DNA from: Cyrtodaria siliqua
Taxonomy: Eukaryota > Mollusca > Bivalvia > Adapedonta > Hiatellidae
Length of the DNA stretch: 64,000 bases
Reading direction: 5' to 3'
Assembly: GCA_037043455.1 (NCBI GenBank)
Contig: JAWPHD010003087.1
Coordinates: forward strand, 62,001 to 126,000
Below, piece by piece: positions 504 through 64,000 of this stretch. The position numbers and the translations under genes are program-made. How positions within the stretch are numbered: the first letter of the stretch is position 1; every line of letters starts with the position of its first letter. Under the pieces are notes generated by a model. It saw only the letters and a program-made list of their open reading frames with translations, did no database searches and was not told where the DNA came from.

Positions 504-3500
504 CTGTAATGCAAAGTTACACGGTTTACTTCCGGCCATGTATGGTACGAGACGATTACTATATTAAAAAATTTAATTGATCGCCCACTGCCTCCAGAAG
601 GATTTTGTAATATAATGAATCTGATATGTACAGTCAAACCTGTGTTTAATAGTGGTCACCTCTATTTAGCAACCACCTATTATTTAAAGCAGCCACATTT
701 TCTATATCCCGTTTGTTTCAAACAATGTTAATGTAAATCAGCCTTTATTAAGCAGCCACCTGCCTTTAGAGGTCACTATTGGTCTTTCCCTTGAGTGGCT
801 GCTTAATACAGGTTTGACTGTATATTCGTTGACAAAAGTCAATTTACCATACTAATATCAAAAGGATAATAATATAACCTTTTAATTTTTTCATCCAATT
901 TGGCTTATGTATAGTCACTGACAAGACATCTCACTATACCAATATCAAAAGGTCAAGGTCACATTCAAGGTCAAAAGTCATAGTTTAAAAGTTAGGATGA
1001 AACATACGGTAAATGCAAAAGCTTAAACATTATCTATGACCTTTTCATTTTTTCATCTAATTTTGCTTATTATATTCACAGACAAGACATCTCACCGTAC
1101 CAAACTCAAAGGGTCATGGTCGTATTCAAGGTCAGAGTATGTATTCAAGGTCAGAGTCCTGACTGTATTCAAGGTCAGAGTCTGTATTCAAGGTCAGTCT
1201 GTATTCACAAGTCAAATTAAATCTGCAGCGGGTGGACCTTACCGTCTGTGACAACTACTTGTCTATATAGCAGGAAGCAGGAGTTGTGTAATAAATAAAG
1301 ATGTGAACACATTATAGATTTGGTTGGGATTTAAAAATAAAAACAAAGGTTTTATATTTGACGAGTAACCTCAATTGAAACAAATTTTCCATAAGGCCCT
1401 AAAATGCCATCTGCTGACATGTAGCATTTAACTGATATTTAACGTGTATGCATTTGTATTCAATCATCATATGACATGCAAGAGCTGAGCATCGCCTGCC
1501 AGGCATATACGCACGTCTTTGGCAAGGTTAAGTTCCATGTTCAATTTTTTCAAAGGACAATAACTAAAGCGAACTATCACTGAGGGTGATGAATATCCCC
1601 ACTTTTGGAAAACAGTTGTTATGTGTATCTACCCATTCAAAACTGTTTGAGAAATAAAGCAATAAAAATGTGTTATGTGACTTGATAAAAATGTGTTACA
1701 GCATGCGGCGCAACAAAAATGTGACATTACGGACACCGTGATTCCTGTATAGCCCCCACTTTATAAAAGCGGGGGTATAAAACATACGAATCAGAGAGTT
1801 ATTGGATTGTCTAAGATGTATTCATTGGGTCATGATGAAGATGTGTGCAAAGTTTCGTTTCAAGCAAAATTAAGTTCCAGGTTATATCTTTTTTCAAAGG
1901 GGAATAAGTCAAAAAATATTAGAGAGTTATGGGCCAGTATCAGATGTATTCATTGAATCATGCTGAAGACGTGTACAAAGTGTCACTGTTGTAGACATTA
2001 TACTTTGAAAGTTATTAGCCACAATCAGTTGTCAGGTAAAAGTTAACCGACAGACTGATCGACCGACGGAAAACGCCACGACATAATACGTCATATAACA
2101 AATACCACCCAGCTCGGCACTCCTGGTTTACGCTACAAAAGTAACAAAAAAAACCTGAATATTAACAAAGCCTACCTTTTTAGTAACAAAATGTCTGAGC
2201 ATGTCAGGACGAACATGTGGTAGCTGTAGAAGGGGACTGGACTTGGCATCTAGGCCCTGGGTTATCATCTGTGACAATTTCATACAGTTCTCAACAGTGT
2301 CTAGACGCGGCATCTCCTGTGGACCTGTACAAAATGGTAAAGGAAAACTATTTCTGACCTAAGTTACCAAGAGGAACTATTTCTGAACTCAAGTTGCCAA
2401 GGGTATCATATCTGACCTCAAGTTACCAAGAGGAACCCAGGGCTCAACCTAGGCAAGGAATTTAGGGAGAAGTCACTTCTCCCTCAAGTGATTTTAGGGA
2501 GAAGTGGAGAGAATTTAGGGAGACTTCACGCGACGTGTATACGTAGACAACGGTGGAATAGTCATCACCATGTATATCGAAGTGCAGTGAATACAGTGTA
2601 ATGCACACTAATTCTTTTTACTCTATAATATGAGCTTGAAATATTGATGCAAATTTCTATGATAATGGATTTATTACTAAACTGTACCTTTTTAAAAAAA
2701 AAAAAAAATGTTTTTTTTTAATTTTTCGGCGACTTTAACTTCGCTTTGATGTGCTGCCAAGGCGAAGTCAAGAGATCGCGGGCGCGTTCTTCGCCCGAAT
2801 CGCCCTGTAGATTGAGCCCTGGAACCATATCTGACCTCAAGTTACCAAAAGGAACCATATCTGACCTCAAGTTACCAAGAGGAACAATATCTGACCTCAA
2901 GTTACCAAGAGGAACCATATCTGACCTCAATTTACCAAGAGGAACCATATCTGACCTCAAGTTACCAAGAGGAACCATATCTGACCTCAAGTTACCAAGA
3001 GGAACAATATCTGACTTCAAGTTACCAAGATGAACCATATGACGAACCATATCTGACCTCAATTTACCAAGAGGAACCATATCTGACCTCAAGTTATCAA
3101 CAGAACCATATCTGACCTCAAGTTACCAAGAGGAACCATATCTGACCTCAAGTTACCAAGAGGAACCATATCTGACCTCAAGTTACCAAGAGGAACCATA
3201 TCTGACCTCAAGTTATCAAGAGGAACAATATCTGATCCAAGTTATCAAGAGGAACCATATTTTACCTCAAGTTACCAAGGAGAACCATGGTGCTGGCTAC
3301 AAGCTGGGAGGAGGTTTGATATGACTTATGTTGTCTAGTCATGGTGCTGGCTACAAGCTGGGAGGCATTTGATGACTTATGTTGTCTAGCCATGGTGCTG
3401 GCTACAAGCTGGGAGGGCGTTTGATGACTTATGTTGTCTAGCCATGGTGCTGGCTACAAGCTGGGAGGGCGTTTGATGACTTATGTTGTCTAGCCATGGT

Positions 3501-6500
3501 GCTGGCTACAAGCTGGGAGGCATTTGATGACTTATGTTGTCTAGCCATGGTGCTGACTACAAGCTGGGAGGCATTTGATGACTTATGTTGTCTAGCCATG
3601 GTGCTGGCTACAAGCTGGGAGGGCGTTTGATGACTTATGTTGTCTAGCCATGGTGCTGGCTACAAGCTGGGAGGGGGTTTGATACGACATGTTGTCTAGC
3701 AATGGTGCTGGCTACAAGCGCGGAGGGCGTTTAATAAGACATGTTGTCTAGCCATTGTGCTGGCAACAAGCTGGGAGTGGGGTTGATGACTTATGTTGTC
3801 TAGCCATGGTGCTGGCAACAAGCTGGGAGGAGGTTTGATAAGACTTGTTGTCTAGCCATAGTGCTGGCTATAAGCTGGGAGTGCATTTGATGACTTATGT
3901 TGTCTAGCCATGGTGCTGGCTACAGGTTTGGAGGGTGTTTGATAAGACGTTGTCTAGCCATGGTGCTGGCTACAAGCTGGGTATGTTGTCTAGCCATAGT
4001 GCTGGCTATAAGCTGGGAGTGCATTTGATGACTTATGTTGTCTAGCCATGGTGCTGGCTATAAGCTTGGGGGCGTTTGATAAGACGTCTAGCCATTGTGC
4101 TGGCTACAAGCTGGGAGGAGGTTTGATAAGACTTGTTGTCTAGCCATGATGCTAGCTACAAGCTGGGAGTGCATTTGATGACTTATGTTGTCTAGCCATG
4201 GTGCTGGCTACAGGTTTGGAGGGTGTTTGATAAGACGTTGTCTAGCCATGGTGCTGGCTACAAGCTGGGTATGTTGTCTAGCCATGGTGCTGGCTACAAG
4301 CTGGGAGGGGGTTTGATAAGACTTTACGTTGTCTAGCCATGGTGCTGGCTACAAGCTAGGAGGGGGTTTGACGACTTATGTTTCTAGCCATGATGCTGGC
4401 AACAAGCTGGGAGTAGGTTTGATAAGACATATTGTCTAGCCATGGTGTTGGCTACAAGCTGGGTATGTTGTCTAGCCATGGTGCTGGCTACAAGCTGGGA
4501 GGGCATTTGATGACTTATGTTGTCTAGCCATGGTGCTGGCTACAAGCTTGGAGGGCGTTTGATGACGTCTAGCCAAGGTGCTGGCTAGAAGCTGGGAGGG
4601 CATTTGATGACATGTTGTCTAGCCATGGTGCTGGCTACAAGCTGGGAGGGGGTTTGATAAGACTTTACATTGTCTAGCCATGGTGCTGGCTACAAGCTGG
4701 GAGGGGGTTTGATGACATGTTGTCTAGCCATGGTGCTGGCAACAAGCTGGGAGTAGATTTGATATGACATATTGTCTAGCCATGGTGCTGGCTACAAGCT
4801 GGGAGGGCATTTGATGACTTATGTTGTCTAGCCATGGTGCTGGCTACAAGCTTGGAGGGTGTTTGATAAGACATTTTCTAGCCATGGTGCTGGCTAGAAG
4901 CTGGGAGGGCGTTTGATGACTTATGTTGTGTAGCCATGGTGCTGGCTACAAGCTGGAAGTGGTTTAGTTTAAACTTATTTATTTTACATCGATTGTAACG
5001 AAAGCTCTATGAACTTATTTGAATCACTCTCGATGTCTTCCTGGGTAGAACCAGTACTAAGCAATGCAGATAAAGTGTCTTGCTCAGGGACACAACGCAT
5101 ATGGCAATGACGGGAATCGAACCCACGACTTTTGGATCATGGGTCCAACGCTCTACCACTAGACCACCGCGCTCCTTGTCTAGCCATGGTGCTGGCTACA
5201 AGATGGGAGGGCGTTTCATGACATGTTGTCTAGCTATGGTCCTGGCTACAAGATGGGAGGGCATTTGATGACTTATGTTGTCTAGTCATGCTGCTGGCTA
5301 CAAGCTGGGAGGAGGTTTGATCTGGTTATGTTGTCTGGCCAGGGCCCTGGCTACAAGCTGGGAGGGGTTTAATACTTATGTTATCTGGCCATGGCGCTCG
5401 CTTCAAGCTGGGAGGGGTTTATTACTTATGTTGTCTGGCCATGGCACTGGCTACAAGCTGGGAGGGGTTTGATTTATTACTTACGTTGTCTGGCCATGGC
5501 ACTGGCTACTAGCTGTGAGAGAATGTTGACCATTTCGTTAATCAGTGCAGGGCATTTCTGCAGTATATATTTACGATCTGAAATAAACATACAAGCATCA
5601 ATGTAGTAAAGAAGAAATAGCACACAGAACTGTATCAACAACTTGGCTTGCAGTTACATATTGAAAAAATACTTTAAGGTAAAGAAGCATGCTTTAATAA
5701 AATACTTTGTTTCTTAATATCAGAAACTTGTTTCAATATTGAACAGTCAGTTGATTCGTGAATAATAAGGATTTTTAATATATGAATGGTGTTTTACTTC
5801 ATTTTTAGCACATGCTAGGCCATATATGACAGTTGATTTGTTCGCGGTAGCAGTAGACCACCCCATTTTTCCTGGATAGAACCAGTACTAGATACCTCCC
5901 ATCATTGGTAAGAATCGACACTTTCTCACTTGACAAGTCGAGCTCCCAGTGGGATTCGAACCCGCAGCGATGAGAGGCGAGAAAGTTGTAGAATCAATGT
6001 CTTTACTATCCTGGCTACAGAGGCACAATAATAAGGAAAACTCAATGTATAGGAGAGATATATAACTTGTCCTCTTAAAGTCCATAATTCATCACCACAT
6101 TTACACAATAACACGTGTTTCTGTTCATAATGCTTCCAGTCGCAAACGATGGCATGCTTATTGTCATTGATGACCATATGCACTCTGAGACAGCCCACTG
6201 GCCAAGGGGGGCGTAAGAATGTGTACCTACCTAGATCGAGTGAGTTTAGTGGCAGCTCCAGTCTGTTGAAGTGGGCATGTAGCAAGGCACGAGCCTTCAC
6301 ACTGTAGCCAAAACACAGAGGGCGCTCTTTATTCTTCTCATCCAGGTTAGGCAACTGCTTCATCAACTGACAAATAAAAACAGATATATCAATAACCGAC
6401 CCATCCGAGTATGAGGTATGTCAATTGCCTATTTTTTATTTATCTGATATTAATACGCAAGACTGATAAAAGACAAGACTGTAAAAATATACCAGTATCT

Positions 6501-9500: not shown

Positions 9501-12500
9501 GTCGTTTTGTTTCCTCTTTGATTTCCACACAATTCATGTTTCAAACGAGTCATGAATGACTGAGTCCAACCTCCTATATAGTATGTAATACTGTCATATC
9601 TACACAATTCATGTTTCAAACGAGTCATGAATGACTGAGTCCAACCTCCTATATAGTATGTAATACTGTCATATCTACACAATTCATGTTTCAAACGAGT
9701 CATGAATAACTGAGTCCAACCTCCTATATAGTATGTAATACTGACATATCTACACAATTCATGTTTCAAACGAGTCATGAATGACTGAGTCCAACCTCCT
9801 ATATAGTATGTAATACTGACATATCTACACAATTCATGTTTCAAACGAGTCATGAATAACTGAGTCCAACCTCCTATATAGTATGTAATACTGTCATATC
9901 TACACAATTCATGTTTCAAACGAGTCATGAATAACTGAGTCCAACCTCCTATATAGTATGTAATACTGACATATCTACACAATTCATGTTTCAAACGAGT
10001 CATGAATAACTGAGTCCAACCTCCTATATAGTATGTAATACTGTCATATCTACACAATTCATGTTTCAAACGAGTCATGAATAACTGAGTCCAACCTCCT
10101 ATATAGTATGTAATACTGACATATCTACACAATTCATGTTTCAAACGAGTCATGAATGACTGAGTCCAACCTCCTATATAGTATGTAATACTGACATATC
10201 TACACAATTCATGTTTCAAACGAGTCATGAATGACTGAGTCCAACCTCCTATATAGTATGTAATACTGTCATATCTACACAATTCATGTTTCAAACGAGT
10301 CATGAATGACTGAGTCCAACCTCCTATATAGTATGTAATACTGTCATATCTACACAATTCATGTTTCAAACGAGTCATGAATAACTGAGTCCAACCTCCT
10401 ATATAGTATGTAATACTGACATATCTACACAATTCATGTTTCAAACGAGTCATGAATGACTGAGTCCAACCTCCTATATAGTATGTAATACTGACATATC
10501 TACACAATTCATGTTTCAAACGAGTCATGAATAACTGAGTCCAACCTCCTATATAGTATGTAATACTGTCATATCTACACAATTCATGTTTCAAACGAGT
10601 CATGAATAACTGAGTCCAACCTCCTATATAGTATGTAATACTGACATATCTACACAATTCATGTTTCAAACGAGTCATGAATAACTGAGTCCAACCTCCT
10701 ATATAGTATGTAATACTGTCATATCTACACAATTCATGTTTCAAACGAGTCATGAATAACTGAGTCCAACCTCCTATATAGTATGTAATACTGTCATATC
10801 TACACAATTCATGTTTCAAACGAGTCATGAATAACTGAGTCCAACCTCCTATATAGTATGTAATACTGTCATATCTACACAATTCATGTTTCAAACGAGT
10901 CATGAATGACTGAGTCCAACCTCCTATATAGTATGTAATACTGACATATCTACACAATTCATGTTTCAAACGAGTCATGAATAACTGAGTCCAACCTCCT
11001 ATATAGTATGTAATACTGACATATCTACACAATTCATGTTTCAAACGAGTCATGAATAACTGAGTCCAACCTCCTATATAGTATGTAATACTGTCATATC
11101 TACACAATTCATGTTTCAAACGAGTCATGAATGACTGAGTCCAACCTCCTATATAGTATGTAATACTGTCATATCTACACAATTCATGTTTCAAACGAGT
11201 CATGAATGACTGAGTCCAACCTCCTATATAGTATCTAATACTGACATATCTTTGTAGTAATAATTCTATTTGCTTTATTTCAATCAACAGATTTATTTGT
11301 GGAGTTTTCTGAACTAAGTAATTTGAAACTGATATATAGTCATTAAACTCTGAAAGATGTGTGAATGTTCCGCTACACCTACATTTTATCAATTAGATTT
11401 CAATAATGCAGGTATTGTATTTTCCCTAACAGAAGCGCCCGGGCGCTATGCAAAGTGGGTGGGTGAATTCTATCAAGGGAGGCATTTTTATTGGGATAAA
11501 TAACACAAGACATGATTGTCTTCAACAGAATATATCAGTTAAAAAATCGACTTACTTTTGAGTATCATTCGAGGATTCTTGCTGAAGAAGTACATGTAGA
11601 GACGTGTTGTGTCCAGCAGCACCTGATCCTTGCTGAACTTTATTGATCTATACCACCACACACCCTACAGATGAACACATAGGTTGTTTCAATTAATTAT
11701 TAAACTCTACTTGGACATTTGTATTAAAGGGAATGTTGGCATAGATATTCAAATTTTATTAATGGGAGTTTTGAAAAGCTTGGAAAAGGATGAACTAATT
11801 CTCTAAATCCGAAAAAGGTCACTTCGCCCCCGCCCACTAATAATAATACACTAATAATGCAATTACAGTGTCAGTTTTTCATACTTTTGCACATTAATTG
11901 GTATAATAGTCATCTAATAAAGAGATAAACAGCATGTCAAACGATTTATTATATTAACTCGGGACGTCTTCCCTGGGGTTCGGGTTGGAGGGGGTGGGTG
12001 GAGGGTAACGGGGTCAATTTATTTAAAGATTATTTCTCAAACATTTTGATGACAGTGGGGTGGGGGAAGGGGGTGGGGGGAGTGACCTGTGTGAATAAAA
12101 CGTGGGTATTTTACGATGGCCACACCGTCGAATTCGTTCTAATTATTATTATTAGTATATGTGTTGAACCAAGGTTTTAATCAATTCAATTCACTGTTAC
12201 ACCTGCCCAGACTAGAGGTACTGTAGAGGTACTCACCACAACTGCTGGCATGATGACCATAAATAAGACGATGTACACCAGCAGTACCTGTAATATACAT
12301 GATGACAAATGCAGTTGTAATAAAGTCGTGGTCAGATTTACACAGAATCAGAACCGAATATAATCCCACATTCCATTCCCCTGGAGGGAGGTATCTTTCA
12401 GGGTATACTCAAATTAAACAATCTTATTCCTTAGTTCTGCATTTTCCTCCAAGAAGAGGTCAAAATTAGCAGTCATACTCACCAATTAAGATAATTTCAT

Positions 12501-15500
12501 TTTTTTTTTATTTGTAGTCAAGTTTGTGACCTTTGTTAAATATACAGTTTATATGTTACAAATTCAGGTATTTCATAGTAATGTTATTTTATAAGCTTCA
12601 GGCATTAAATACACGGAAATCATTTTTTTGTTCCAAAAGTCAGGTCTAATTTAAAAGATAGTATTCAATTGTTTTTTTCTCGCAGTTACTGTTCATTTTT
12701 CATGACATCATGCTCATTTATTATGATCAATTAGCTCACACATAAATGTAATGTCTAAAAGAAGCAAAATAAAAGTACAGAATACACAGGTTAATGTGTG
12801 CACTGACCCACATGGAGTTTTCGTCATCTACAATCCATTTAGGCAATGCTATTCCAAATGTTGTCACTGAAAAAAGGGAAAAAAAGATTGCGAATAAAAA
12901 TACGAATAAATCCTGAAAATCACATACGAGTTCTTAACAAAGGTGTGATGTAGTGAAAGGGAATGCAAATAAACACAGAGTCTGATTGATTGTGTTTCAG
13001 CACATTTTAGGCTATGTATGTTTGTCAATTTTTGGTGGTGGAGGCAGACCACCCACTTATTCATGGGTAGAACCAGTACTGTATACCTCCCACCAGCCAT
13101 AAGAATCGACACATATTAAACAAAGAGCAATGCCAAGGGTACATAACACTAGCGGATCCAGGGGGGGGCGCACCCGGCGCGCGCCCCCCCTAAAATGTCC
13201 GGATCATACATGTATGTCCATGTTACTATAGATAAAATATCAAACAATTTCGTTGCACGCCCTCAGTATAAAAAAGTTTCTCGCTCGCTTCGCTCGCTCG
13301 CCGCATAATGGCTAATGTGTGGTTTAATTAACACATTGTTAAATCCTTTTATTTGGAAACGGACTTTTTTATTCATACATGTATGTCCATGTTACTGTAG
13401 ATAAAATATCAAACAATTCCGTTGCACGCCCTCAGTATAAAAAAGTTTCTCGCTCGCTCGACGCATAATGGCTAATGAGTGGTTTAATTAACACATTGTT
13501 AAATCATTTTATTTGGAAACGGACTTTTTTATTCATACATGTATGTCCATGTTACTGTAGATAAAATATCTAACAATTTCGATGCACGCCCTCAGTATAA
13601 AAAAGTTTCTCGCTCGCTTCGCTCGCTCGACGCATAATGGCTAATGTGTGGTTTAATTAACACATTGTTAAATCCTTTTATTTGGAAACGGACTTTTTTA
13701 TTCATACATGTATGTCCATGTTACTGTAGATAAAATATCAAACAATTCCGTTGCACGCCCTCAGTATAAAAAAGTTTCTCGCTCGCTCGACGCATAATGG
13801 CTAATGAGTGGTTTAACTAACACATTGTTAAATTCTTTTATTTGAAAACGGACTTTTTTACCCTATCAATGCACTACCGCAACCGTTTTATGAGGCTATA
13901 GACGGACCCGAAAATTGACCAAAATCTTACGCCCCCCCTAAGCTGAAATCCTGGATCCGCCCCTGCATAATACACCTGTCAAAAGACGATTTAACATGTA
14001 AAGTAAAAGGTATGTGTCAGATACATAATTTGAGTTTTGACTGAAAAAACATCTTATAAACAGGAATGTCGGAGAGCAGATCAAGTGCCCTGAATGGCCT
14101 TGCAAGTGGCCCAGACATAGATGGAAGGAATGTCAGTATTGGATGAATGCCCCAGGATGGACCATTATGAAGACCTTGATGTTTGACCTGACCCCAAACC
14201 CAGTAAAGTTTCTCCGCAAGGAAGTGAACGCACAGAATGAGTTATTGTTCACGGATAGATTAAAGGATGTACAGACAACCCTATATGTAAATATGTCCCA
14301 TTTACTATACTATTTATTTACAGTCATACTCATTACTACCATCTACCATATTCAATGCTTTGCATAAAACGATATTGTTGATTTTTAACATTAACATTAC
14401 TGAGTGATTAGAACCCCAGCATACCTCCCGGCCCATCAGGATTGCCATGTTCCTCCCAGTTTTTCTTCGATTCTTCATCTGTCAACCTGAAATTAACAAA
14501 AAATTACAACTGTATTTAAAACAATAGCGCCATTTTTAACTACCAGCTAAGGGTTATTCCATTAAAATATACTAAAGTGTTCAAGTTTATGAGAAGGGAC
14601 ATACATCTGCACTGGATAACTGATAAGGAAGAACTGTATAAAGTTTCATGACCATAGGTAAATATTTTGCCAAGTTATGAGCTAGGTTAGGTTGCAGGTT
14701 GAAGTTTTATGAAAATGAGCATAACTCTGCCAAAATGAAGGTCAAGAGTTATTGGACATGTGTCACAACATTTCGTTGGTTAAGATGAAAATGTGTGTGA
14801 AGTTTCATAAACATGGGTCAAATAATGTTCACATTATGGCCAGTTATGAGATAGTGTTATGAAAAGGGGCATAACTCTGCTAAAAGGAGTCAGAGATCTT
14901 GGAAACAATATTCTCAGTGATAAGATGAATATGTGTCTGTGTAAAGTTTCATGAACCTAGGTCAAATATTTCTGAATTTATAGCGATGAGGATTGCATCA
15001 CGGTATTTTGTGCCTGAAATGTGTCGTATCAAACATGGTGATCAGACAATAAAGGGTTAACTCAGGTCTGCTATATACTCACGCTGCATAAGCTTTAGCC
15101 ACTCTCATGAACATCTTACTGTCCCCCGTCTCCTTGTCAGGATGGAACATCAAACTCAACTTTCTGTATGCCTTCTTGATATCTCTGTCAGTGGCACCCT
15201 ATCAAGCAAAACAGAAGTATACATCTATGTTATAATTATTACAAACTTTTTTTCTTTCTGACAGGCTCAATAAACAAAGAAGTGTAAAACTGACACTATA
15301 ACAAAGATCTGTGAACGGCTGTATGCATCCATTTTTTTTTTCTTCAATAATGAAATATTAGAAGTCTGTCTTACAAAAAGAATTGAAAATGTTCAGAACA
15401 TGTTCAACATGTTCACATGACACCAGGGTATCATGAAGTCTGAAAGCAGGCAAAATGAACTCGTTTTTCATTAACACATGTTGTAGTTAAGGAGTCAACA

Positions 15501-18500
15501 CAGTTATATATAAATGCAGTAACAATTACCCGGTCAATCTGGAGGATCTGGAAGGGGTCGTATTCAGTGTAATCCATTTTGATTAATGACACCTTGTAGG
15601 CAAGCAAAACAAATATTACCCATCCGAATATCAGACCTAGCTTTCTGAAAAGTAAAATAAGCATACATGTAATATCTCACTCTGTTTGACCGAATTTCGT
15701 CTGTTCAGAAGTCGAAAATCTATGCAATTTGGACATTTCACTGAAAAAATTATGGAATGAAAACAAATTTAAAAGCTGTTTAATGACATTTTCCTATTTT
15801 ATTTTATCATTAAATGCTTTAAAATGGTTAAATGTATGAAAATATTTGATAAAACCTCACATATATACCTTATGCTTAAAAGATCTCCCAGATTTTGGAC
15901 AAATCTCCCTTGAACAATTCTTAAATCTCCCAGATTGTGGCTTCAATAGTATGACATGTATGAATTATAAGTATTACAGCTAAAATTCAAACGTAAAATA
16001 TTAAAGCTGCTATCCTACCAATAACAGCCAAATTTTACAACATGTGGAGTACGGTCTCTATGACATCACAGTGTTACTAAGTACACCATGCTACAAAAAA
16101 GTCTGTCTCAGCTCGTTGGTTATTTAAACACCTTGATGGGCGTACTTGATGGGCTACACTCATCTCGGTGTTTAAATAAGCCAACTCGCTGAGACCAGAC
16201 TCTTTCTATTACGTATATCATAATTACTTAGAACTTACATGGCCTTTTTTCTTGTACTTATCCATGATGTTTTAACCTGTGTCCTTTGTCGTTTCTCCAC
16301 ACATGGCGGACAGTGACAGAGTCTGCTGTTTCTCTGTTTCTCATCTGAAATCAAATGTGTAATCGTCAATCTATTTGCAAGCAGCTTGCTGACAGGAAGG
16401 ACAAGACATGGTTGCTGTACGATTGGGGAGGCCAGCAAACTCCCCGCAGTAGTTACTTCCCCTTTCTCTTACAGTAACCACTGCCACCACACTAATTTAT
16501 AGCTGAAATCCAGCTACGTTTAATCTTTTGGTTAATTATTTTTAAGTCAATATTTCAACTTGCATTGTTCATAATATAGGAAAATAGTGTAAAAAACGGT
16601 ATCTGGTTACAAAAAGAATTTATTTATTTTAAAAAAATCAGTTTTAGCGAATATGAACACCGGTTACTTGGTTACTTGTTAACAAACATGTATTCCGCTG
16701 AGAACATTACAGAAGCTGTACGTAAATTTAATAAAGAGATTACACCCAAGCCAAAACAGGTTGAATGTTTTCAACATCTTCCTGAAGGTGATGATGTTAT
16801 TGCCAATTGCCTGTTGGTTACGGCAAGAGTTTGCTGTTCCAGTGTATCGCCATTTTTGTAATCACATGGCCTCAGCTATCGTCACATCATTTATGTGGTG
16901 GCAGGGATTGTGGGCTACAATATCACCGTGTGGAAGTTGCCAAGTCAGGTGTAATCAACTAGACAACATAACCTCTGTGTCACATGTAAAGCGCTTCAGT
17001 GGCCCGGATAGTCAAGACGTTGCTTCTAAAACTTTCCTGCCTCTCACCGCTGCAGGTTCAAATAAATGCCCCCCTTTTCAAAAATGTTACACCCCCAGGG
17101 GCGTTTAATAGGGATTATACGATATTATATATGTCTAATTTTCACCATGTTTGGTTTGAAAATTGTCTCATTAAGATCTTGGATGAATTGGACATTGAAA
17201 CAAGAGGCCCAAGAGAGCCTGTGGACACTCTACTTGCTAAATATAAAGTTTATGTATAATATCATTCAACCGGAACATGGCGATGACATAGCAACTTGGC
17301 AGGGATGATCATAGCAACTAGGCTTGGTACTGATCATCCCTGGCTCCTTGAAATCCATTCCGGGCCTGTCTCATTTTGCAGACAAGGAGCCCGTCAGGCC
17401 TGTCTAAAAAAAAAAAATATATATATCCCCAAAAAAATCATTTTTACTGGATCTCAAGCTCAAGTTTCTCAAGACAAAATACTCCCATGTGTATTGTGAA
17501 CTGTGAAAACACTTGCAATAAAGTAATTAAAATGTGTTATACACACATTGAAACAATAAGAAGTTTGAATATTTTCCCTGGCTTCGTGTCGGCAGTTTGT
17601 CACAACTTTGAGGTCGACAATTGTTGACATAAAACTCATTATTCTGCTATTAGGGTTGTGTTTTCTTTCCTTTGTGATAAGAAATACCGTTTTTTGTCAC
17701 TAAAAACACACTAATGCATGAAAACAAAATCGTTATTGATGGTATTTCGATTGAATGTTTGTGAAATGTTCGGGCCGTAATAGTGAGGTGTCATAGTAGT
17801 TTGGATGGTACATAATTTCGGATAAATATACTGTATATGTATAAATACAGATATAAAGTATATTTCTATTCATTATTTAAGGTGTAAGGAGTTCCTGGAA
17901 TCCTACTTTTAAATGAATTCTAGTCCAGGCTCCTAATTCTTTACTTGGAGAAAGTGGTGACAAAAAGATAAAATATAGCCAGAGGAGGCTCTGATAGTCT
18001 CATAAAACCTGATTAAATATTTGGCTCCAAGTTTAGCTCCAGTTTCACCAAGTCGGCTCTGATTATTATCGTTTGGCAAAAGTGCTAGTACTCTCCTTTG
18101 CATTGATTATAATTTACTATGTAATATTCTATTCTAACATATTTTAAATGAAGTGGTAAATAAGTCCGCTGACCAGGGAGCATAAAGTGTTAGCAAAAAG
18201 AAAAATATAGTCAGAGGAGGTTCTGAGCTTGATTAATACATACTCCACTGTTACTGGTCCGATCTGGCTGGTTTTCGAACTTATCCGAGCTTTCATTGAT
18301 ATTAACAACCTGTTAAAGTTTGGTAAAGATCGGTTGAGATATGAAGGCCCTATCGTCTTAACGAGACAAAAGTTAACGAGACAAAAGTTAACGACAGACG
18401 GACGACGGACAACTCACCATCCCATAAGCTCTTTTGGCCCTTGGCCAGTAGAGCTAAAAACACACATAATGTTAAGTATCAGGGCACTCAAATATGTTTG

Positions 18501-25244: not shown

Positions 25245-28200
25245 TGTATCGCGGGTGTCGCGGCTGTCCTATAGCACTGAGCTAGAGTTTGAGAAGCCCT
25301 GGGTGTCACGGCTATCCTATAGCACTGACCGAGAATTGTGAGAAGCCCTGGTAGTCGCGGCTATCCTATAGCACTGATCTAGAATGGTGAGAAGCCCTGG
25401 GTGTCGCGGCTATCCTATAGCACTGACCTAGAATTGTGAGAAGCCCTGGGTGTCGAGGCTATCCTATAGCACTGACCTAGAATTGTGAGAAGCCTGGATG
25501 TCGCGGCTATCCTATAGCACTGACCTAGAGTTTTTGAAGCTATGGGTGCCACGGCTATCCTATAGCACTGACCTAGAGTTTGAGAAGCCCTGGTCGTCGC
25601 GGCTATCCTATAGCACTGACCTAGAGTTTGAGAAGCCCTGGGTGTCGCGGCTATCCTATAGCACTGACCTAGAGTTTGAGAAGCCCTGGGTGTCACGGCT
25701 ATCCTATAGCACTGACCTAGAGTTTGAGAAGCTATGGGTGCCACGGCTATCCTATAGCACTGACTTAGATTTTGAGAAGCCTTTGGTGTCGCGGCTATCC
25801 TATAGCACCGACCTAGAGCTTGAGAAGCCCTGGGTGTCGCAGCTATCCTATAGCACTGATCTAGAGTTTGAGAAGCCCCGGGTGTCGTGGCTATACTATA
25901 GCACTGACTTATATGTAGAGTTTGAGAAGCCTCGGGTGTCGCGGCTATCCTATAGCACTGACCTAGAGTTTGATAAGCCCTGGGTGTCGCGGCTATCCTA
26001 CAGCACTGACCTAGTTTGAGAAGCCCTGGGTGTCTCGGCTATCCTATAGCACTGTCCTAGAGTCTGAGAAGCCCTGGGTGTCACGGCTATCCTATAGCAC
26101 TGATATAGAGTCTGAGAAGCCCTGGGTGTCTCGGCTATCCTATAGCACTGTCCTAGAGTCTGAGAAGCCCTGGGTGTCGCGGCTATCCTATAGCACTGAC
26201 CTAGAATTGTGAGAAGCCCTGGGTGTCGCGGCTATCCTATAGCACTGAGCTAGAGTTTGAGAAGCCCTGGGTGTCACGGCTATCCTATAGCACTGACCTA
26301 GAGTTTGAGAAGCCCTGGGTGTCACGGCTATCCTATAGCACTAACTAGAATTGTGAGAAGCCCTGGGTGTCGCAGCTATCCTATAGCACTGACCTAGAAT
26401 TGAGAGAAGCCCTGGGTGTCGCGGTTATCCTATAGCACTGACCTAGAATTGTGAGAAGCCCTGAGTGGTGCGGCTATCCTATAGCACTGACCTAGAATTG
26501 TGAGAAGCCCCGAGTGTCACGGCTATCCTATAGCACTGACATAGAATTGTGAGAAGCCCTGGGTGTCGCGGCTATCCTATAGCACTGACCTACAGTCTGA
26601 GAAGCCCTGGGTGTCTCGGCTATCCTATAGCACTGTCCTAGAGTCTGAGAAGCCCTGGGTGTCGCGGCTATCCTATAGCACTGACCTAGAATTGTGAGAA
26701 GCCCTGGGTGTCGCGGCTATCCTATAGCACTGAGCTAGAGTTTGAGAAGCCCTGGGTGTCACGGCTATCCTATAGCACTGACCTAGAGTTTGAGAAGCCC
26801 TGGGTGTCACGGCTATCCTATAGCACTAAACTAGAATTGTGAGAAGCCCTGGGTGTCGCAGCTATCCTATAGCACTGACCTAGAATTGAGAGAAGCCCTG
26901 GGTGTCGCGGTTATCCTATAGCACTGACCTAGAATTGTGAGAAGCCCTGAGTGGTGCGGCTATCCTATAGCACTGACCTAGAATTGTGAGAAGCCCCGAG
27001 TGTCACAGCTATCCTATAGCACTGACATAGAATTGTGAGAAGCCATGGGTGTCGCAGCTATCCCATAGCACTGACCTAGAATTGTGAGAAGCCCTGGGTG
27101 TCGCGGCTATCCTATAGCACTGACCTAGAGTTTGAGAAGCCCTGGGTGTCACTGCTATCCTATAGTACTGACCTAGAGTTTGAGAAGCCCTGGGTGTCAC
27201 GGCTATCCTATAGCACTGACCTAGCGTTTGAGAAGCTATGGGTGCCACGGCTATCCTATAGCACTGACCTAGAATTTGAGAAGCTATGGGTGCCACGGCT
27301 ATCCTATAGCACTGACGTGGAGTTTGAGAAGCTATTGATGCCACGGCTATCCTATAGCACTGACGTAGAGTTTGAGAAGCCCTGGGTGTCGCAGCTATCC
27401 TATAGCACTGACCTAGAGTTTGAGAAGCCCCGGGTGTCGCGGCTATACTATAGCACTGACCTACATGTAGAGTTTGAGAAGCCCCGGGTGTCGCGGCTAT
27501 CCTATAGCACTGACCTAGAGTTTGAGAAGCCCTGGGTGTCGCGGCTATCCTATAGCACTGACCTACAGTTTGAGAAGCCCTGGGTGTCTCGGCTATCCTA
27601 TAGCACTGGCCTAGAGTCTGAGAAACCCTGGATGTCACGGCTATCCTATAGCACTGATATAGAGCTTGAGAAACCCTGGGTGTCGCGGCTATCCTATAGC
27701 TCTGACCTACAGTCTGAGAAGCCCTGGGTGTCTCGGCTATCCTATAGCACTGTCCTAGAGTCTGAGAAGCCCTGGTTGTCACGGCTATCCTATAGCACTG
27801 ATATAGAGCTTGAGAAGCCCTGGGTGTCGCGGCTATCCTATAGCAATGACCTAGAATTGTGAGAAGCCCTTGGTGTCGCGGCTATCCTATAGCACTGACC
27901 TAGAGCTTGAGAAGCCCTGGGTGTCATGGCTATCCTATAGCACTGACCTAGAGTTTGAGAAGCCCTGGGTGTCACGGCTATCCTATAGCACTGACCTAGA
28001 ATTGTGAGAAGCCCTGGGTGTCGCAGCTATCCTTTAGCACTGACCTTGAATTGTGAGAAGCCCTGGGTGTCTTGGTTATCCTATAGCACTGACCGAGAAC
28101 TGTGAGAAGCCCTGGGTGTCACAGCTATCCTTTAGCACTGACCTTGAATTGTGAGAAGCCCTGGGTGTTGCGGTTATCCTATTGCACTGACCGAGAATTG

Positions 28201-28712
28201 TGAGAAGCCTTGGGTGTCGCAGCTATCCTATAGCACTGACCTAGAATTGTGAGAAGCCCTGGGTGTCGTAGCTATCCTATTGCACTGACCTAGAATTGTG
28301 AAAGCCCTGGGTGTAGCGGCTATCCTATAGCACTGACCTAGAGTTTGAGAAGCCCTGGGTGTCACAGCTATCCTATAGCACTGACCTAGAGTTTGAGAAG
28401 CCCTGGGTGTCACGGCTTTCCTATAGCACTGACCAAGAGTTTGAGAAGCTATGGGTGCCACGGCTATCCTATAGCACTGACCTAGAGTTTGAGAAGCTAT
28501 GGGTGCCACGGCTATCCTATAGCACTGATGTAGAGTTTGAGAAGCTATGGGTGCCACAGCTATCCTATAGCACTGACGTAGAGTTTGAGAAGCTATGGGT
28601 GCCACGGCTATCCTATAGCACTGACCTAGAGTTTGAGAAGCTATGGGTGCCACGGCTATCCTATAGCACTGACCTAGAGTTGGAAAAGCTATGGGTGCCA
28701 CGGCTATCCTTT
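25245..28712. repeat. 48/49-bp minisatellite between the two genes, ~72 copies
   Basis: Unit ctatcctatagcactgacct + agagtttgagaagccctggg + tgtcgcgg (48 bp). A second class has gaattgtgagaag in place of gagtttgagaag and is 49 bp. Runs of 48-bp units are open on both strands (plus: STDLEFEKPWVSRLSY; minus: ASQTLGQCYRIAVTPR), but each 49-bp unit breaks the frame, so this is not a gene. A ten-unit block of ~485 bp is duplicated in tandem around 26110-27085. Confidence 0.95.
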
Positions 28713-36100: not shown

Positions 36101-39100
36101 TTTTGCCTCGTTAATACGGTGGGGCCTTCATTTTTCATCTGATCTTTACCAAACTTTACCAGATTCTTTAGTTATGGCCCTTGATTTAGTTAAAAAGCTG
36201 TTTTTTGCCCGAAACTTTCAACAAAACCGTAAATGGCAGTCAGTCGCTTCATTGATGTTATAAGAGCCGTGTTAGCCAGTAGAGCATCCACAGGCCCTCT
36301 TGGGCCTCTTGTTTGTTTTTATATTATCTCCAAATGAACAAGATGAAATATAAAAATTGCATTTGTAATTTTGACTATTTCGAAAGGTGTGTTTGCGGCC
36401 ATATTTGTTGTTTTACATTGTACTCGAGTATAGTATGCAGTTTTTTAGCTCGACTGATCAGCAGAGCTTATGCCGTGGTGTGGCGTCCGGCGTCCGTCTG
36501 TCGGTAAACTTTTATTTGTAGCGACAACTCCTCTGAAACTACTGGATGGATATTCATGAAACTTTACAGAAATGTTGCCCATAAAGTCTAGTTGATCCTA
36601 GCAAAAATTCATGTTGATGTGAAATCCAAGATGGCCGCCAAAGCTAAAAATAGAGTTTTAAAATACAAGATTGTAGCGACTACTTCTTGAAAACTATAAG
36701 TGATATTGATATGGGACTTTTTCTAAAATGATCAGCATGACATGATGTTGATCCTTGTCAAAAATCGTTTTGATTCAACGTTAAACATGGCTGCCAGCGG
36801 CCATCTTTGTTTACATAGAGTTATATAGTAAAAACTTGTAGCGACTACTCCTCTGAAACTACTTGGCGGATTGTCATGAAACTTTACAGGAATGTTGCTC
36901 TTAATGTCTAATTGATCCTAGCAAAATTTCAGATCTGTGAGAAATTCAAGATGGCCACCACAGCTAAAAATAGATTTTTAAAAAATAAGTTTGTAGCGAC
37001 TACTTCTTGAAAACTGTAAGTGATATTGATATGGGACTTTTTCTAAAATGATCAGCATGACATGATGGTTATCCGAGTCGAATATCGTTTTGATTTGACG
37101 TTAAACATGGCTGCCAGCGGCCATCTTTGTTTACGTAGAGTTATATAATGAAAACTTGTAGCGACTACTTCTCTGAAACTACTAGACAGATTTTCATGAA
37201 ATTTCACAGGAATGTTGCTCTTAATGTCTTATTGATCCTAGCAAAATTTCAGGTCGGCCGGAAATTCAAGATGGCCGCCACGGTTAAAAATAGATTTTCA
37301 AAAAACAAGTCTGTAGCGACTACTTTCTGAAATCAAAATCAATCAGTAGAGCTTCAAGGTCATTGACCTCTTGTTTTACTTATTTTACTGTTTTCAAAAG
37401 GGAGGTCTAAGAAGGGTGCATACTATACACGGTAAAATACAGTATGTGACCTATCAGTGACTTCTAAAAGACGGTACATTCAAAATAACCTGCGATATGA
37501 GGAAAGTCGTCCCGTAAAGTAGTTGATGTCAAAGACAAACAAAATACTCACCAAAATAAACTTTTTTAAAAAAAATATTTGTGTTTAGTGTTAATTCAAT
37601 ATTCATGCATTACAATAAATAAATTACAAGCATTAGTTTTAAATTCCTAAATTGTGCATGTTCAACAATCAATCGTCCCGTCTTTTAGTAGTCACCATTA
37701 GTTTTACAACTTTGGGGATCGCTATATATATATATTAAAATCAATACTACTACCCCTCTAGGTCATAAATGAATCAGTGCATGCATTTGCTTAATTTTTT
37801 GAAATGACTATTTTTAGGAGAGGAAAACACAACTTAGAAGACGTAAAAACACAAATTAAGTTTTTAAACAGATTATTAAATGAAATATATACTGCCTATT
37901 GAAACTACCGTTAGTCCAGCATACTATTGGCGATTGTAATCGATAGTTCAAGTTGCTTTTGATGCATTGCTATTGGGACGATCACTATTGCAATACATCG
38001 ATAGTTTGATGTATTTTTACTCCTCTATTTATAATGTATCTATAGAGTTTGGATTCTCAAAATATTCAGGGCATTTTTATCAGTTTTGGGGAAGGGGCCT
38101 TTTGCGCTTATACGGGCCGCTGCGAAGAATGGTAAAACGGCCCTGATATGTAAACTATATATATATGTATATACCTCCTAGTCAGTAGGTTCAGACACGG
38201 TGTACATCTGTATATACCTCCTAGTCAGTAGGTTCAGACACGGTGTACATCTGTATATACCTCCTAGTCAGTAGGTTCAGACACGGTGTACATCTGTATA
38301 TACCTCCTCGTCAGTAGGTTCAGACACGGTGTACATCTGTATATACCTCCTCGTCAGTAGGTTCAGACACGGTGTACATCTGTATATACCTCCTAGTCAG
38401 TAGGTTCACACACGGTGTACATCTGTATATACCTCCTAGTCAGTAGGTTCAGACACGGTGTACATCTGTATATACCTCCTCGTCAGTAGGTTCAGACACG
38501 GTGTACATCTGTATATACCTCCTAGTCAGTAGGTTCAGGCACGGTGTACATCTGTATATACCTCCTCGTCAGTAGGTTCAGACACGGTGTACATCTGTAT
38601 ATACCTCCTCGTCAGTAGGTTCACACACGGTGTACATCTGTATATACCTCCTCGTCAGTAGGTTCAGACACGGTGTACATCTGTATATACCACCTAGTCA
38701 GTAGGTTCAGACACGGTGTACATCTGTATATACCTCCTCGTCAGTAGATTCAGACACGGTGTACATCTGTATATACCTCCTAGTCAGTAGGTTCAGACAC
38801 GGTGTACATCTGTATATACCTCCTAGTCAGTAGATTCAGACACGGTGTACATCTGTATATACCTCCTAGTCAGTAGGTTCAGACACGGTGTACATCTGTA
38901 TATACCTCCTAGTCAGTAGGTTCAGGCACGGTGTACATCTGTATATACCACCTAGTCAGTAGGTTCACACACGGTGTACATCTGTATATACCTCCTCGTC
39001 AGTAGGTTCAGACACGGTGTACATCTGTATATACCACCTAGTCAGTAGGTTCACACACGGTGTACATCTGTATATACCTCCTCGTCAGTAGGTTCAGACA

Positions 39101-42100
39101 CGGTGTACATCTGTATATACCTCCTCGTCAGTAGGTTCAGACACGGTGTACATCTGTATATACCTCCTAGTCAGTAGGTTCACACACGGTGTACATCTGT
39201 ATATACCACCTAGTCAGTAGGTTCAGACACGGTGTACATCTGTATATACCACCTCGTCAGTAGGTTCAGACACGGTGTACATATGTATATACCTCCTCGT
39301 CAGTAGGTTCAGACACGGTGTACATCTGTATATACCTCCTCGTCAGTAGGTTCACACACGGTGTACATCTGTATATACCACCTAGTCAGTAGGTTCAGAC
39401 ACGGTGTACATCTGTATATACCACCTCGTCAGTAGGTTCAGACACGGTGTACATCTGTATATACCTCCTAGTCAGTAGGTTTAGACACGGTGTACATATG
39501 TATATACCTCCTCGTCAGTAGGTTCAGACACGGTGTAAATATGTATATACCTCCTAGTCAGTAGGTTCAGACACGGTGTACATCTGTATATACCACCTCG
39601 TCAGTAGGTTCAGACACGGTGTACATATGTATATACCTCCTCGTCAGTAGGTTCAGACACGGTGTACATATGTATATACCTCCTAGTCAGTAGGTTCAGA
39701 CACGGTGTACATCTGTATATACCTCCTAGTCAGTAGGTTCAGACACGGTGTACATATGTATATACCTCCTCGTCAGTAGGTTCAGACACGGTGTACATCT
39801 GTATATACCTCCTAGTCAGTAGGTTCAGACACGGTGTACATCTGTATATACCTCCTCGTCAGTAGGTTCAGACACGGTGTACATCTGTATATACCTCCTA
39901 GTCAGTAGGTTCAGGCACGGTGTACATCTGTATATACCTCCTCGTCAGTAGGTTCAGACACGGTGTACATCTGTATATACCACCTCGTCAGTAGGTTCAG
40001 ACACGGTGTACATCTGTATATACCTCCTAGTCAGTAGGTTCAGACACGGTGTACATCTGTATATACCTCCTAGTCAGTAGGTTCAGACACGGTGTACATC
40101 TGTATATACCTCCTCGTCAGTAGGTTCACACACGGTGTACATCTGTATATACCTCCTAGTCAGTAGGTTCAGACACGGTGTACATCTGTATATACCTCCT
40201 CGTCAGTAGGTTCAGACACGGTGTACATCTGTATATACCTCCTAGTCAGTAGGTTCAGACACGGTGTACATCTGTATATACCACCTAGTCAGTAGGTTCA
40301 GACACGGTGTACATCTGTATATACCACCTCGTCAGTAGGTTCAGACACGGTGTACATCTGTATATACCTCCTCGTCAGTAGGTTCAGACACGGTGTACAT
40401 CTGTATATACCTCCTCGTCAGTAGGTTCAGACACGGTGTACATCTGTATATACCTCCTCGTCAGTAGGTTCAGACACGGTGTACATCTGTATATACCTCC
40501 TAGTCAGTAGGTTCAGACACGGTGTACATCTGTATATACCTCCTCGTCAGTAGGTTCAGACACGGTGTACATCTGTATATACCTCCTAGTCAGTAGGTTC
40601 AGACACGGTGTACATCTGTATATACCTCCTCGTCAGTAGGTTCAGACACGGTGTACATCTGTATATACCTCCTAGTCGGTAGGTTCAGACACGGTGTACA
40701 TCTGTATATACCTCCTCGTCGGTAGGTTCAGACACGGTGTACATCTGTATATACCTCCTAGTCAGTAGGTTCAGACACGGTGTACATCTGTATATACCTC
40801 CTCGTCAGTAGGTTCAGACACGGTGTACATCTGTATATACCTCCTCGTCAGTAGGTTCAGACACGGTGTACATCTGTTGTACAATTGCCTGTTGATGGCT
40901 GAATAGGGATATAAGGCCAAATAAAATAATAGGTGTGTTTCCGGTTACCCGACCTACCCTAGAAATTCCCGCCAACCCTATGGTTTTTATTGCATTCCAA
41001 AAAAAAAAAAAAAAATTTCAAGCCGACCCCCGTCCGTAATGGATTCCGGAATATCAGGCAGGCGCTTGATTGAGTTAATAGATATCAGGGTTCTCAATAG
41101 ACGCGTACACACGCATTTTGACGCATGGAAATTCAGTTTGACCAAATTCTGACGCAGCTAATTTACCACCTGTGCGTGCTTATGACGCGCGTGTATTTGC
41201 TTCCAAGCATCAATCCAATACACATGTACCTATTTTCGATAGCCCAAACATCACAATAATGAGCACGCGCTGCATATCAGTGATTGACACCTTGGCTGAC
41301 GACCTTGATCGCCTCTCGACCAATCAAATTCGCTGCTGTCACAGCTTGTGGCACAGAGGCGGAAATAACTTGTCTATAAATGGTGTCACTGTGTAATCTA
41401 ATCGCTGCTTTTGTGTTAATAATTTAACGATTATCTTTGAAGTTTATGATGCTTTTTGCGGGTGGAGACTATTATGACCTCATTGGATTAACTGTTTAAT
41501 TGATTGCTACCGGCTTCTGATTGATTACCGGTTAATTAGACCGAACTGAAATAAAACAAATGCTAGCGATCAAACATGTGAAAAATATAAAAATCGGCAA
41601 ACATAAAATCGACTTTATTTGTGTTTGTTGACGTTGTTTTTTAATTGTGTTTGTTGTTTATTAATTTTGTTTTACCCATAAAGAACAAAGAAACGCGTAT
41701 TTTAACCTGGGTTATTGTTCAGTCAAAACTTACCGGACATTACGCATTGTTATATTTTGTGTTGACATACTATTTTTGTGCAGTCGAGTAACGGACTTTA
41801 TTAATTCATGTATGTTCAAAATTTATGTATGTTCAATACACAAATGGCGCAAAGAAGTATATTTTTATTTATGTCATCGCAGTCTACGAAACGGCCTGTG
41901 TGTTGGGGATGCACTGTCTGAGGTAGTCTCATTTATTTGACGTCTTCGGGTGCCTTTTTTTTTTTTACATACGGACGTTTATAGATGCACCCTAGGTGCA
42001 GTCTGACCCCGAAGAAGCAGAAAATAAGACAGCTAGTATTATAATAACACCAATAACTTATAATATATAATATCACCAATAACTTTTAATTTTAACAGAT

Positions 42101-63200: not shown

Positions 63201-64000
63201 TAGGTCCCCCTCAATAGTTCAGGTGTTGGGTCCCCTCAATAGTTTAGATGTTAGGTCCCCCTCAGTAGTTCAGGTGTTGGGTCCTCCTCAATAGTTCATG
63301 AGTTAGGTCCCCCTCAATAGTTCAGGTGTTGGGTCCCCTCAGTAGTTCAGGTGTTAGGTCCCCCTCAATAGTTAGGTGTTAGGTGCCCCTCAATAGTTCA
63401 GGTGTTGGGTCCCCTCAATAGGTCAGGTGTTGTTCCCCTAAATAGTTCAGGTGTTAGGTTCTGTCAATAGTTCAGGTGTTGGGTCACCCTCAATAGTTCA
63501 GGTGTTAGGTTCCCGTCAATAGTGAGGTGTTGGGTCCCTCAATAGTTCAGGTGTTAGGTCCCTTTAATAGTTCAGGTGTTAGGTTCTCTCAATAGTTCAT
63601 GTGTTAGGTGCCCCTCAATAGTTCAGGTGTTGGGTCCCCTCAGTAGTTCAGGTGTTGGTTCTCCTAAATACTTCAGATGTGATGTCCCGTCAATAGTTCA
63701 GGTGTTTAGGTCCCCTCAGTAGTTCGAATACTTCAGATGTGAGTTCCCTCAATAGTTCAGGTGTTAGGTCCCCTCAATAGTTCAGGTGTTAGGTTGTTAG
63801 GTTCCCTCAGTAGTTCAGATAAGTTAAGGTGTTAGGTCCCCCTAAATAGTTCAGGCGTTGGTCCCCCTCAGTAGTTCAGGTGTTAGGCCCTTCTCGATAG
63901 TTCAGGTGTTTGGTCCCCTAAATAGTTCAGGCCTTGGGTCCCTCCTCAATAGTTCAGGTGCCAGGTCTCCCTCAATAGTTCAGGCGTTGGGTCCCCTCAA
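60240..64000. repeat. ~25-bp minisatellite, ~145 copies, runs off the window
   Basis: Unit aatagttcaggtgttaggtc + cccctc with 23-28-bp length variants and frequent substitutions (ttaggt/ttgggt, caatag/cagtag, variable C-runs). Longest array in the window; its right end is not seen. Confidence 0.95.

What the first reader, a model, noticed from the sequence alone, without database searches (positions are those of the whole stretch)
3286..5577. A minisatellite built from the 3' end of a coding exon and its splice donor
On the minus strand each 52-bp unit copies about 35 bp of SEC63 exon 11 (codons LVASxMARQ) plus the start of intron 11. The array abuts the true exon, which is its terminal unit (about 35/41 matches at 5479-5519). 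About 40 tandem copies of a coding-exon edge beside the functional exon could offer decoy 5' splice sites or a reservoir for gene conversion into the exon. I do not know of a described precedent, though I cannot search.
Basis: partly seen in the sequence, partly recalled or inferred. Interest (0 to 1): 0.9.

Follow-up and report, generated by a model that had tools for sequence, protein, structure and literature searches.

The report
Repeated exon edge beside SEC63 exon
In this bivalve mollusc a short piece covering the end of one coding exon of the SEC63 gene and the start of the next intron has been copied about 40 times in a row; this is a known but rarely reported kind of repeat, described in amphioxus, and a small survey suggests that it is fairly common in this mollusc's genome.

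Summary
On the minus strand, SEC63 exon 11 (5485-5577) is followed by 40 tandem units (36-55 bp, usually 50-52) copying about 30-45 nt of its 3' end plus the first ~12 nt of intron 11; a tRNA-headed SINE interrupts one unit. The exon is the source: its end reads QLVASAMARQR, as in Dreissena and Mya. The two proposed roles are not supported. None of 40 units keeps GTAAGT; +1 is A in 31 of the 36 units that retain that position, and only two units carry a weak GTAAAG. The exon has none of five array-majority letters, so there is no sign of conversion into it. A precedent exists: 'mirage' minisatellites of amphioxus (PMC3087553). In the same 2.88-Gb assembly, 3 of 58 distinct kinesin exons carry similar edge arrays of 3 to 21 copies, whose units mostly keep their splice signals, while 50 of 140 random flanking intervals have local repeats. 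Best reading: a by-product of a duplication-prone genome. A database protein (P0007) reads through six copies of the SEC63 exon-12 peptide in another animal. New member of a known kind; the frequency in this genome is the interesting part.

The parts
5485..5577 (-). SEC63 exon 11 (93 nt), TTTCAG|ATCGT...AGACAAC|GTAAGT; reads DRKYILQKCPALINEMVNILSQLVASAMARQ with a split codon at each end
5485..5519 (-). 3' end of exon 11 that is copied in the units (terminal, true unit; homology may reach ~5532)
5205..5484 (-). intron 11 start and proximal units u01-u05; u01 matches the exon edge at 44 of 47, u01-u03 keep some exon-type letters; donor +1 is A in all five
4955..5204 (-). unit u06, interrupted by the SINE-like insert
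4957..5175 (-). SINE-like insert with tRNA-like head at 5102-5173 (the name MetaSINE is recalled)
   Evidence: Rfam RF00005, 37.6 bits; ARAGORN reports no tRNA in the window
3286..4954 (-). distal units u07-u40, mostly 50-52 bp, three of 36 bp
4663..4671 (-). possible weak decoy donor AAT|GTAAAG in u12 (6 of 9 consensus places)
4322..4330 (-). possible weak decoy donor AAC|GTAAAG in u19 (6 of 9)
6231..6366 (-). SEC63 exon 10
2176..2324 (-). SEC63 exon 12, the exon to which exon 11 has to be spliced across the array

Best explanation
It is a 'mirage' minisatellite: a tandem array founded on an exon-intron boundary. A short tandem duplication of ~50 bp spanning the 3' end of SEC63 exon 11 and its donor put a second boundary just inside intron 11 (inferred). 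The founder copy carried or soon gained +1 G>A, so the copy's donor was dead (the widely shared A is shown; the order of events is inferred). Unequal exchange or slippage then expanded mainly the distal copies to 40 units, leaving the units next to the exon outside that turnover (fits the unit tree; the process is inferred). Purifying selection keeps the true exon edge unchanged (its residues are shared with other bivalves; the selection is inferred). The true donor is much stronger than any unit donor by consensus and U1 pairing, so exon 11 is most likely still spliced normally to exon 12 across the array (inferred). No function is needed: this genome is full of local tandem repeats, and some fall on exon edges.
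For: Homology of all 40 units to the exon edge. Exon end LVASAMARQR shared with Dreissena, Mya and three unnamed homologues P0002, P0003 and P0006 (Mactra has LVGSAMVRQR), so the exon is ancestral. u01 and u02 branch next to the exon and the other units form one clade (tree without support values). +1/+2: AT 29, AA 2, GT 5, absent 4 of 40; GTAAGT in 0 of 40. Similar arrays at other exons of the same genome: L075 acceptor side, 21 units of 68 bp; L082 donor side, about ten units of ~83 bp; L020 acceptor side, 3.4 units of 54 bp. Local direct repeats at 50 of 140 random flanking intervals against 8 of 70 exon loci, Fisher p 0.00015. Same anatomy and boundary behaviour as amphioxus mirages.
Against: No RNA and no DNA from a related species was available, so normal splicing, age and founder order are inferred. 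The exon-derived part of the distal units varies less than the rest (0.062 against 0.242 by alignment column; 0.064 against 0.326 for the first 28 and last 9 nt; pairs with gaps 6% against 87%), which a purely neutral array does not predict at once, although gap-tolerant mismatch rates are close (0.069 against 0.084). Exon likeness shows no trend with distance over the whole array (Spearman -0.03) and neighbouring units are no more alike than random ones (p 0.40), so the expansion history is not resolved. The survey covers one protein family plus SEC63.
Confidence: 0.85

Rival explanations
1. The array is kept because it regulates SEC63 splicing: decoy donors or exon-like elements in the units compete with exon 11 and tune exon 11 use or intron 11 retention.
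For: Two units carry GTAAAG at the donor place. The exon-derived part of the units is the less variable part.
Against: 0 of 40 units have GTAAGT; of 93 GTs in the array stretch (SINE included) none reaches 7 of 9 consensus places, against 21 of 451 in an 8-kb stretch over introns 1-2 and exon 2 (tandem copies are not independent). Kinesin arrays in the same genome mostly keep their signals, so there is no common design. Three units fold hardly better than shuffles, z -1.2, 25 of 200 shuffles as good.
Confidence: 0.05
2. The array is a donor of gene conversion into exon 11.
For: Adjacent, same orientation, 30-45 nt of homology.
Against: The exon carries 0 of 5 array-majority letters, of which +1 A would kill its donor and one would change Ala to Thr; the exon residues match Dreissena and Mya. 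Exon-like u01-u03 would fit conversion in the reverse direction as well as ancestry.
Confidence: 0.03
3. Independent satellite next to the exon; the exon end was taken from the array.
For: None beyond the similarity itself.
Against: The exon end LVASAMARQR is shared residue for residue with Dreissena and Mya, and the unit was found nowhere else among the candidates scored in the 2.88-Gb assembly.
Confidence: 0.02
4. Assembly artefact (false expansion or collapse of reads at the exon edge).
For: The assembly has 26,948 contigs and holds near-identical exon pairs; array length could be wrong.
Against: Many units differ from each other by substitutions and indels, and one holds a SINE-like insert, so existence is not an artefact; only the count may be.
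Confidence: 0.04

Closest known systems
'Mirage' minisatellites of amphioxus (Adh3; globins BflGb6 and BflGb9), PMC3087553; section 16 read whole, passages of the abstract seen
   Same: [quoted passage not shown] boundary units outside homogenisation; some units keep and some lose splice signals.
   Different: Mollusc, SEC63, 40 units (amphioxus BflGb6: 6 and 3 units in two haplotypes), donors altered in nearly all units here; expression and length polymorphism untested here.
Minisatellite giving multiple splice donors in human IFI6 (6-16), Turri et al. 1995; seen only as a reference and in short passages of citing papers, original not held
   Same: Minisatellite at an exon-intron edge that contains the donor.
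   Different: There two downstream repeat units serve as donors according to PMC4526556; here GTAAGT is intact in 0 of 40 units. The 12-bp unit length of IFI6 is recalled.
Intron gain by tandem duplication of exon pieces (e.g. PMC4974935, search listing only)
   Same: Tandem duplication that creates extra splice-site copies.
   Different: No new intron here; all copies lie inside an existing intron.
Internal tandem repeats of human segmental-duplication genes (PMC2812944, passages)
   Same: Minisatellites, some at exon-intron boundaries, that can alter gene structure.
   Different: On average 4 copies of 30 bp there, half of them coding.

Membership tests
mirage minisatellite (amphioxus type) | tandem units span an exon-intron boundary | tested here: met
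   40 of 40 units match the exon edge above their shuffles
mirage minisatellite (amphioxus type) | array abuts the true boundary, which is its terminal unit | tested here: met
mirage minisatellite (amphioxus type) | minisatellite-sized units | tested here: met
   36-55 bp; amphioxus 10-72 and 150-160 bp
mirage minisatellite (amphioxus type) | boundary units escape homogenisation | tested here: met
   u01 and u02 next to the exon in the tree, the rest one clade, no support values; u01-u03 alone keep exon letters at two or three diagnostic places; no overall trend with position (Spearman -0.03)
mirage minisatellite (amphioxus type) | regular splicing undisturbed | not testable with these tools
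   no RNA
mirage minisatellite (amphioxus type) | length differs between alleles or cells | not testable with these tools
   exon 11 found on one contig only
IFI6-type splice-donor minisatellite | repeat units hold working donors | tested here: not met
   by sequence only: GTAAGT in 0 of 40 units, GTAAAG in 2
intron gain by tandem duplication | a new intron in the coding sequence | tested here: not met
   exon 11 residues align without insertion to Dreissena, Mya, P0002, P0003 and P0006

The most novel reading that the evidence does not exclude
Exon-edge minisatellites are a general feature of this bivalve's genome: about one exon in twenty carries an array of its own splice-site-bearing edge, renewed by a high rate of local tandem duplication, some arrays with many intact splice signals. 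Such a genome would constantly produce raw material for new introns and exons, and would let one test how the spliceosome picks one site among up to 21 near-copies.
Probability: 0.5. Interest if true: 0.65.

Novelty: new member of a known kind. Interest (0 to 1): 0.48.

Why it matters
In my ten paper searches mirages turned up only for amphioxus; a bivalve with one at SEC63 and three among 58 distinct kinesin exons suggests that they are a regular product of repeat-rich genomes. They set up natural tests of splice-site choice, of intron gain by duplication, and of how selection keeps a functional exon edge distinct from dozens of neighbouring copies. They are also a trap for gene annotation.

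Tried and rejected
Array as source of the exon: rejected by ortholog residues. RNA structure of three units: z -1.2, not notable. Spatial gradient of exon likeness: none beyond the first three units; neighbours no more alike than random pairs, p 0.40. A survivorship rule that exon-edge arrays need dead donors: considered and dropped, because the donor-side kinesin array L082 keeps GTAAGT at six of about ten derived donor places (my reading of the sequence and the positions). A first count of L075 and L082 sites by fuzzy pattern skipped units and was replaced by the listing. L059 was a positive of the self-repeat test but is 97% alike over 242 bp including the exon and groups with L054, so I read it as a tandem gene or exon copy and dropped it from the mirage count. 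A PDB sequence search with exons 10-12 met mainly Brr2-type helicases and Sec63 itself only at E 0.18, so it did not help to name the gene; the protein search did. Protein structure prediction, fold searches and collection scans were not used: the question is not about a fold, and the collections open to me hold prokaryotes and viruses.
Full report
What is there. The window is C3087:62001-126000 of an unnamed assembly of 2.88 Gb in 26,948 contigs. On the minus strand it holds thirteen exons of SEC63, from 23.9 kb down to 0.36 kb. Spliced together they give 452 residues; in the scored region the best hits are unnamed sequences (82%) and SEC63 of Dreissena polymorpha (81%), Mya arenaria (81%) and Mactra antiquata (80%) (120 of 622 hits listed), and Pfam finds DnaJ and Sec63 domains. 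So the host is a bivalve, probably a heterodont near those (inference). Exon 11 is 5485-5577, with TTTCAG before it and C|GTAAGT at its end; exon 12 starts at 2324 and completes the split codon.

The array. From the exon's donor to about 3286, forty tandem units follow, 36-55 bp long and mostly 50-52. Each starts inside the exon sequence (AGCTTGTAGCCAGCACCATGGCTAGACAAC in the commonest form) and goes on into what were the first intron bases (ATAAGTCATCAAA in the commonest form). All 40 units beat their own shuffles in alignment to the exon edge. A SINE-like insert with a tRNA-like head (Rfam RF00005 at 5102-5173; ARAGORN reports no tRNA) sits in unit 6; the name MetaSINE is recalled. Among 351 exon-array pairs in the window (13 exons, 27 arrays, first 600 bases of each), only exon 11 with this array stands out. 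The unit occurs nowhere else in the window, and the two candidates scored in the whole assembly both lie on this contig (the search skips very common words).

Direction. Dreissena, Mya and three unnamed homologues (P0002, P0003, P0006) have the same LVASAMARQR at the exon end; Mactra has LVGSAMVRQR. The exon is thus ancestral and the array derived. In the unit tree, which has no support values, u01 and u02 lie next to the exon and the other units form one clade. u01-u03 keep exon letters at two or three of the five diagnostic places; the other units do not, apart from five with G at +1. Beyond these first units exon likeness does not fall with distance (Spearman -0.03), and neighbours are no more alike than random pairs (p 0.40).

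Splice signals. At the donor place +1/+2 is AT in 29 units, AA in 2, GT in 5 and absent in 4; GTAAGT occurs in none of 40. Of the five GT units, three read GTCTTA, which I take to be a shifted reading after a small deletion (inference), and two read GTAAAG. By matches to CAG|GTAAGT the true donor scores 8 of 9 and those two 6 of 9; computed pairing with the U1 end is -7.3 against -1.6 and -1.9 kcal/mol. The array so offers at most two weak decoys at the donor place. Because most units share one A, this is most simply one change in a founder and no proof of selection.

Conversion. At five places of the exon edge more than 80% of the units share a letter that differs from the exon; the exon has none of these letters. 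There is no sign that the array has written into the exon. Exon-like u01-u03 may be old copies or copies converted by the exon; I cannot tell which.

A survey of the same genome. To see whether this is special, I took kinesin-domain exons (PF00225; 127 matches): 30 loci given by the search and 40 more that I picked from its list, leaving out some that looked like pairs, 70 loci in all, 58 distinct after merging those more than 93% alike. Another 20 could not be fetched. Each match with 40 nt on both sides was compared with its own 3-kb locus. Eight of 70 had a local direct copy. Three are arrays of the exon's own edge. L075, acceptor side, has 21 units of mostly 68 bp; by my reading of the listing the AG at the junction is kept in 15 of 21. 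L082, donor side, has about ten units of ~83 bp; by my reading GTAAGT is kept at six of about ten derived donor places. L020, acceptor side, has 3.4 units of 54 bp, AG kept in the three full ones. L031/L032 (one probable haplotype pair), L070 and L071 have one or two degenerate copies; L059 looks like a tandem gene or exon copy and is not counted as a mirage. That is 3 of 58 distinct kinesin exons, 5.2% with a 95% interval of 1.1-14.4%; with SEC63, where one of 13 exons is positive but was the given finding, 4 of 71, 5.6% (1.6-13.8%). Random intervals of the same lengths in the same flanks had local direct repeats in 50 of 140 cases in that run, and 35 of 100 in an earlier one. Exons are therefore less often touched than their surroundings (8 of 70 against 50 of 140, Fisher p 0.00015; loci are not all independent), as expected if duplications fall anywhere and selection removes many at exons. 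This supports a passive origin. It also shows that dead donors are not a rule.

A second animal. P0007, an unnamed 306-aa reading frame on a 454,666-base ENA contig, consists of six tandem copies (the first and last incomplete or altered at their ends) of the SEC63 exon-12 peptide, joined by VVISAHAQ or IVVISAHAQ. Among 223 proteins compared, its unit is nearest to lophotrochozoan SEC63s (35 of 44 residues with the chiton Liolophura, 33 of 43 with the window). VVIS fits an intron end such as TTATTTCAG, but the DNA was not seen, so an acceptor-side exon-12 array is inferred, and whether it lies inside SEC63 is unknown. A second search found no comparable protein: P0007 itself 644 bits, next 66 (120 of 148 hits listed, 7997 candidates scored). 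Exon 12 is on the other side of the same intron of the same gene, which may be coincidence.

Place in the literature. Ten paper searches were made. PMC3087553 (section 16 whole, passages of the abstract; [quoted passage not shown] its authors' RT-PCR suggests that they do not disturb regular splicing, and it reports length and somatic instability and boundary units left out of homogenisation. The window's array meets the four features of that kind that I could test. Human IFI6 has a minisatellite whose units serve as donors (passages in PMC4526556 and PMC3618361, reference in PMC2572611; original not held). In these searches I saw no report of mirages in molluscs; that is a statement about these ten searches only.

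Unexplained. Among the 33 distal units the exon-derived columns have a diversity of 0.062 against 0.242 for the rest; the first 28 nt differ by 0.064 per site, the last 9 nt of the unit by 0.326; with gaps allowed the mismatch rates are 0.069 and 0.084, but 87% of pairs need a gap in the intron-derived part against 6% in the exon-derived part. A mutational bias of the intron-derived part is the plain reading; constraint on the exon-like part is not excluded.

Verdict. The proposed roles are not supported and a precedent exists. The finding is a new member of a known kind, with added interest because such arrays look common in this genome.

Noticed in passing
P0007: Reading frame of six tandem copies of the SEC63 exon-12 peptide in another, unnamed animal genome; probable acceptor-side mirage of the exon on the other side of the same intron.
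   Followed up: partly
L075 (G000:C14:847884-851018): Acceptor-side array of a kinesin exon edge, 21 units of mostly 68 bp, AG kept in 15 of 21 by my reading.
   Followed up: partly
L082 (G000:C9050:104627-107809): Donor-side array of a kinesin exon edge, about ten units of ~83 bp, GTAAGT kept at about six of ten places.
   Followed up: partly
L020, positions 1251-1520: Acceptor-side array of a kinesin exon edge, 3.4 units of 54 bp.
   Followed up: partly
L031/L032, L070, L071: One or two degenerate local copies of a kinesin exon edge.
   Followed up: no
window 3286-4954: Exon-derived part of the units varies less and has far fewer indels than the intron-derived part.
   Followed up: partly
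window 5850-6000, 43106-43200, 13046-13112, 49595-49641, 17017-17063: Dispersed SINE-like pieces related to the piece at 5850-6000.
   Followed up: no
window 2346-2436 and 2821-3288: Another, 30-bp minisatellite in the same intron 11, abutting the exon-edge array at 3285-3288; related copies lie just upstream of the exon 12 acceptor.
   Followed up: no
window 25253-28710, 38166-40877, 60244-64000, 9527-11251: Large minisatellites of 48, 43, 25 and 75 bp; the window is very rich in tandem repeats (79 TRF rows).
   Followed up: no
G000 assembly: Near-identical exons on different contigs or places (10 of 58 groups have two or three members), suggesting that both haplotypes are partly assembled apart.
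   Followed up: no
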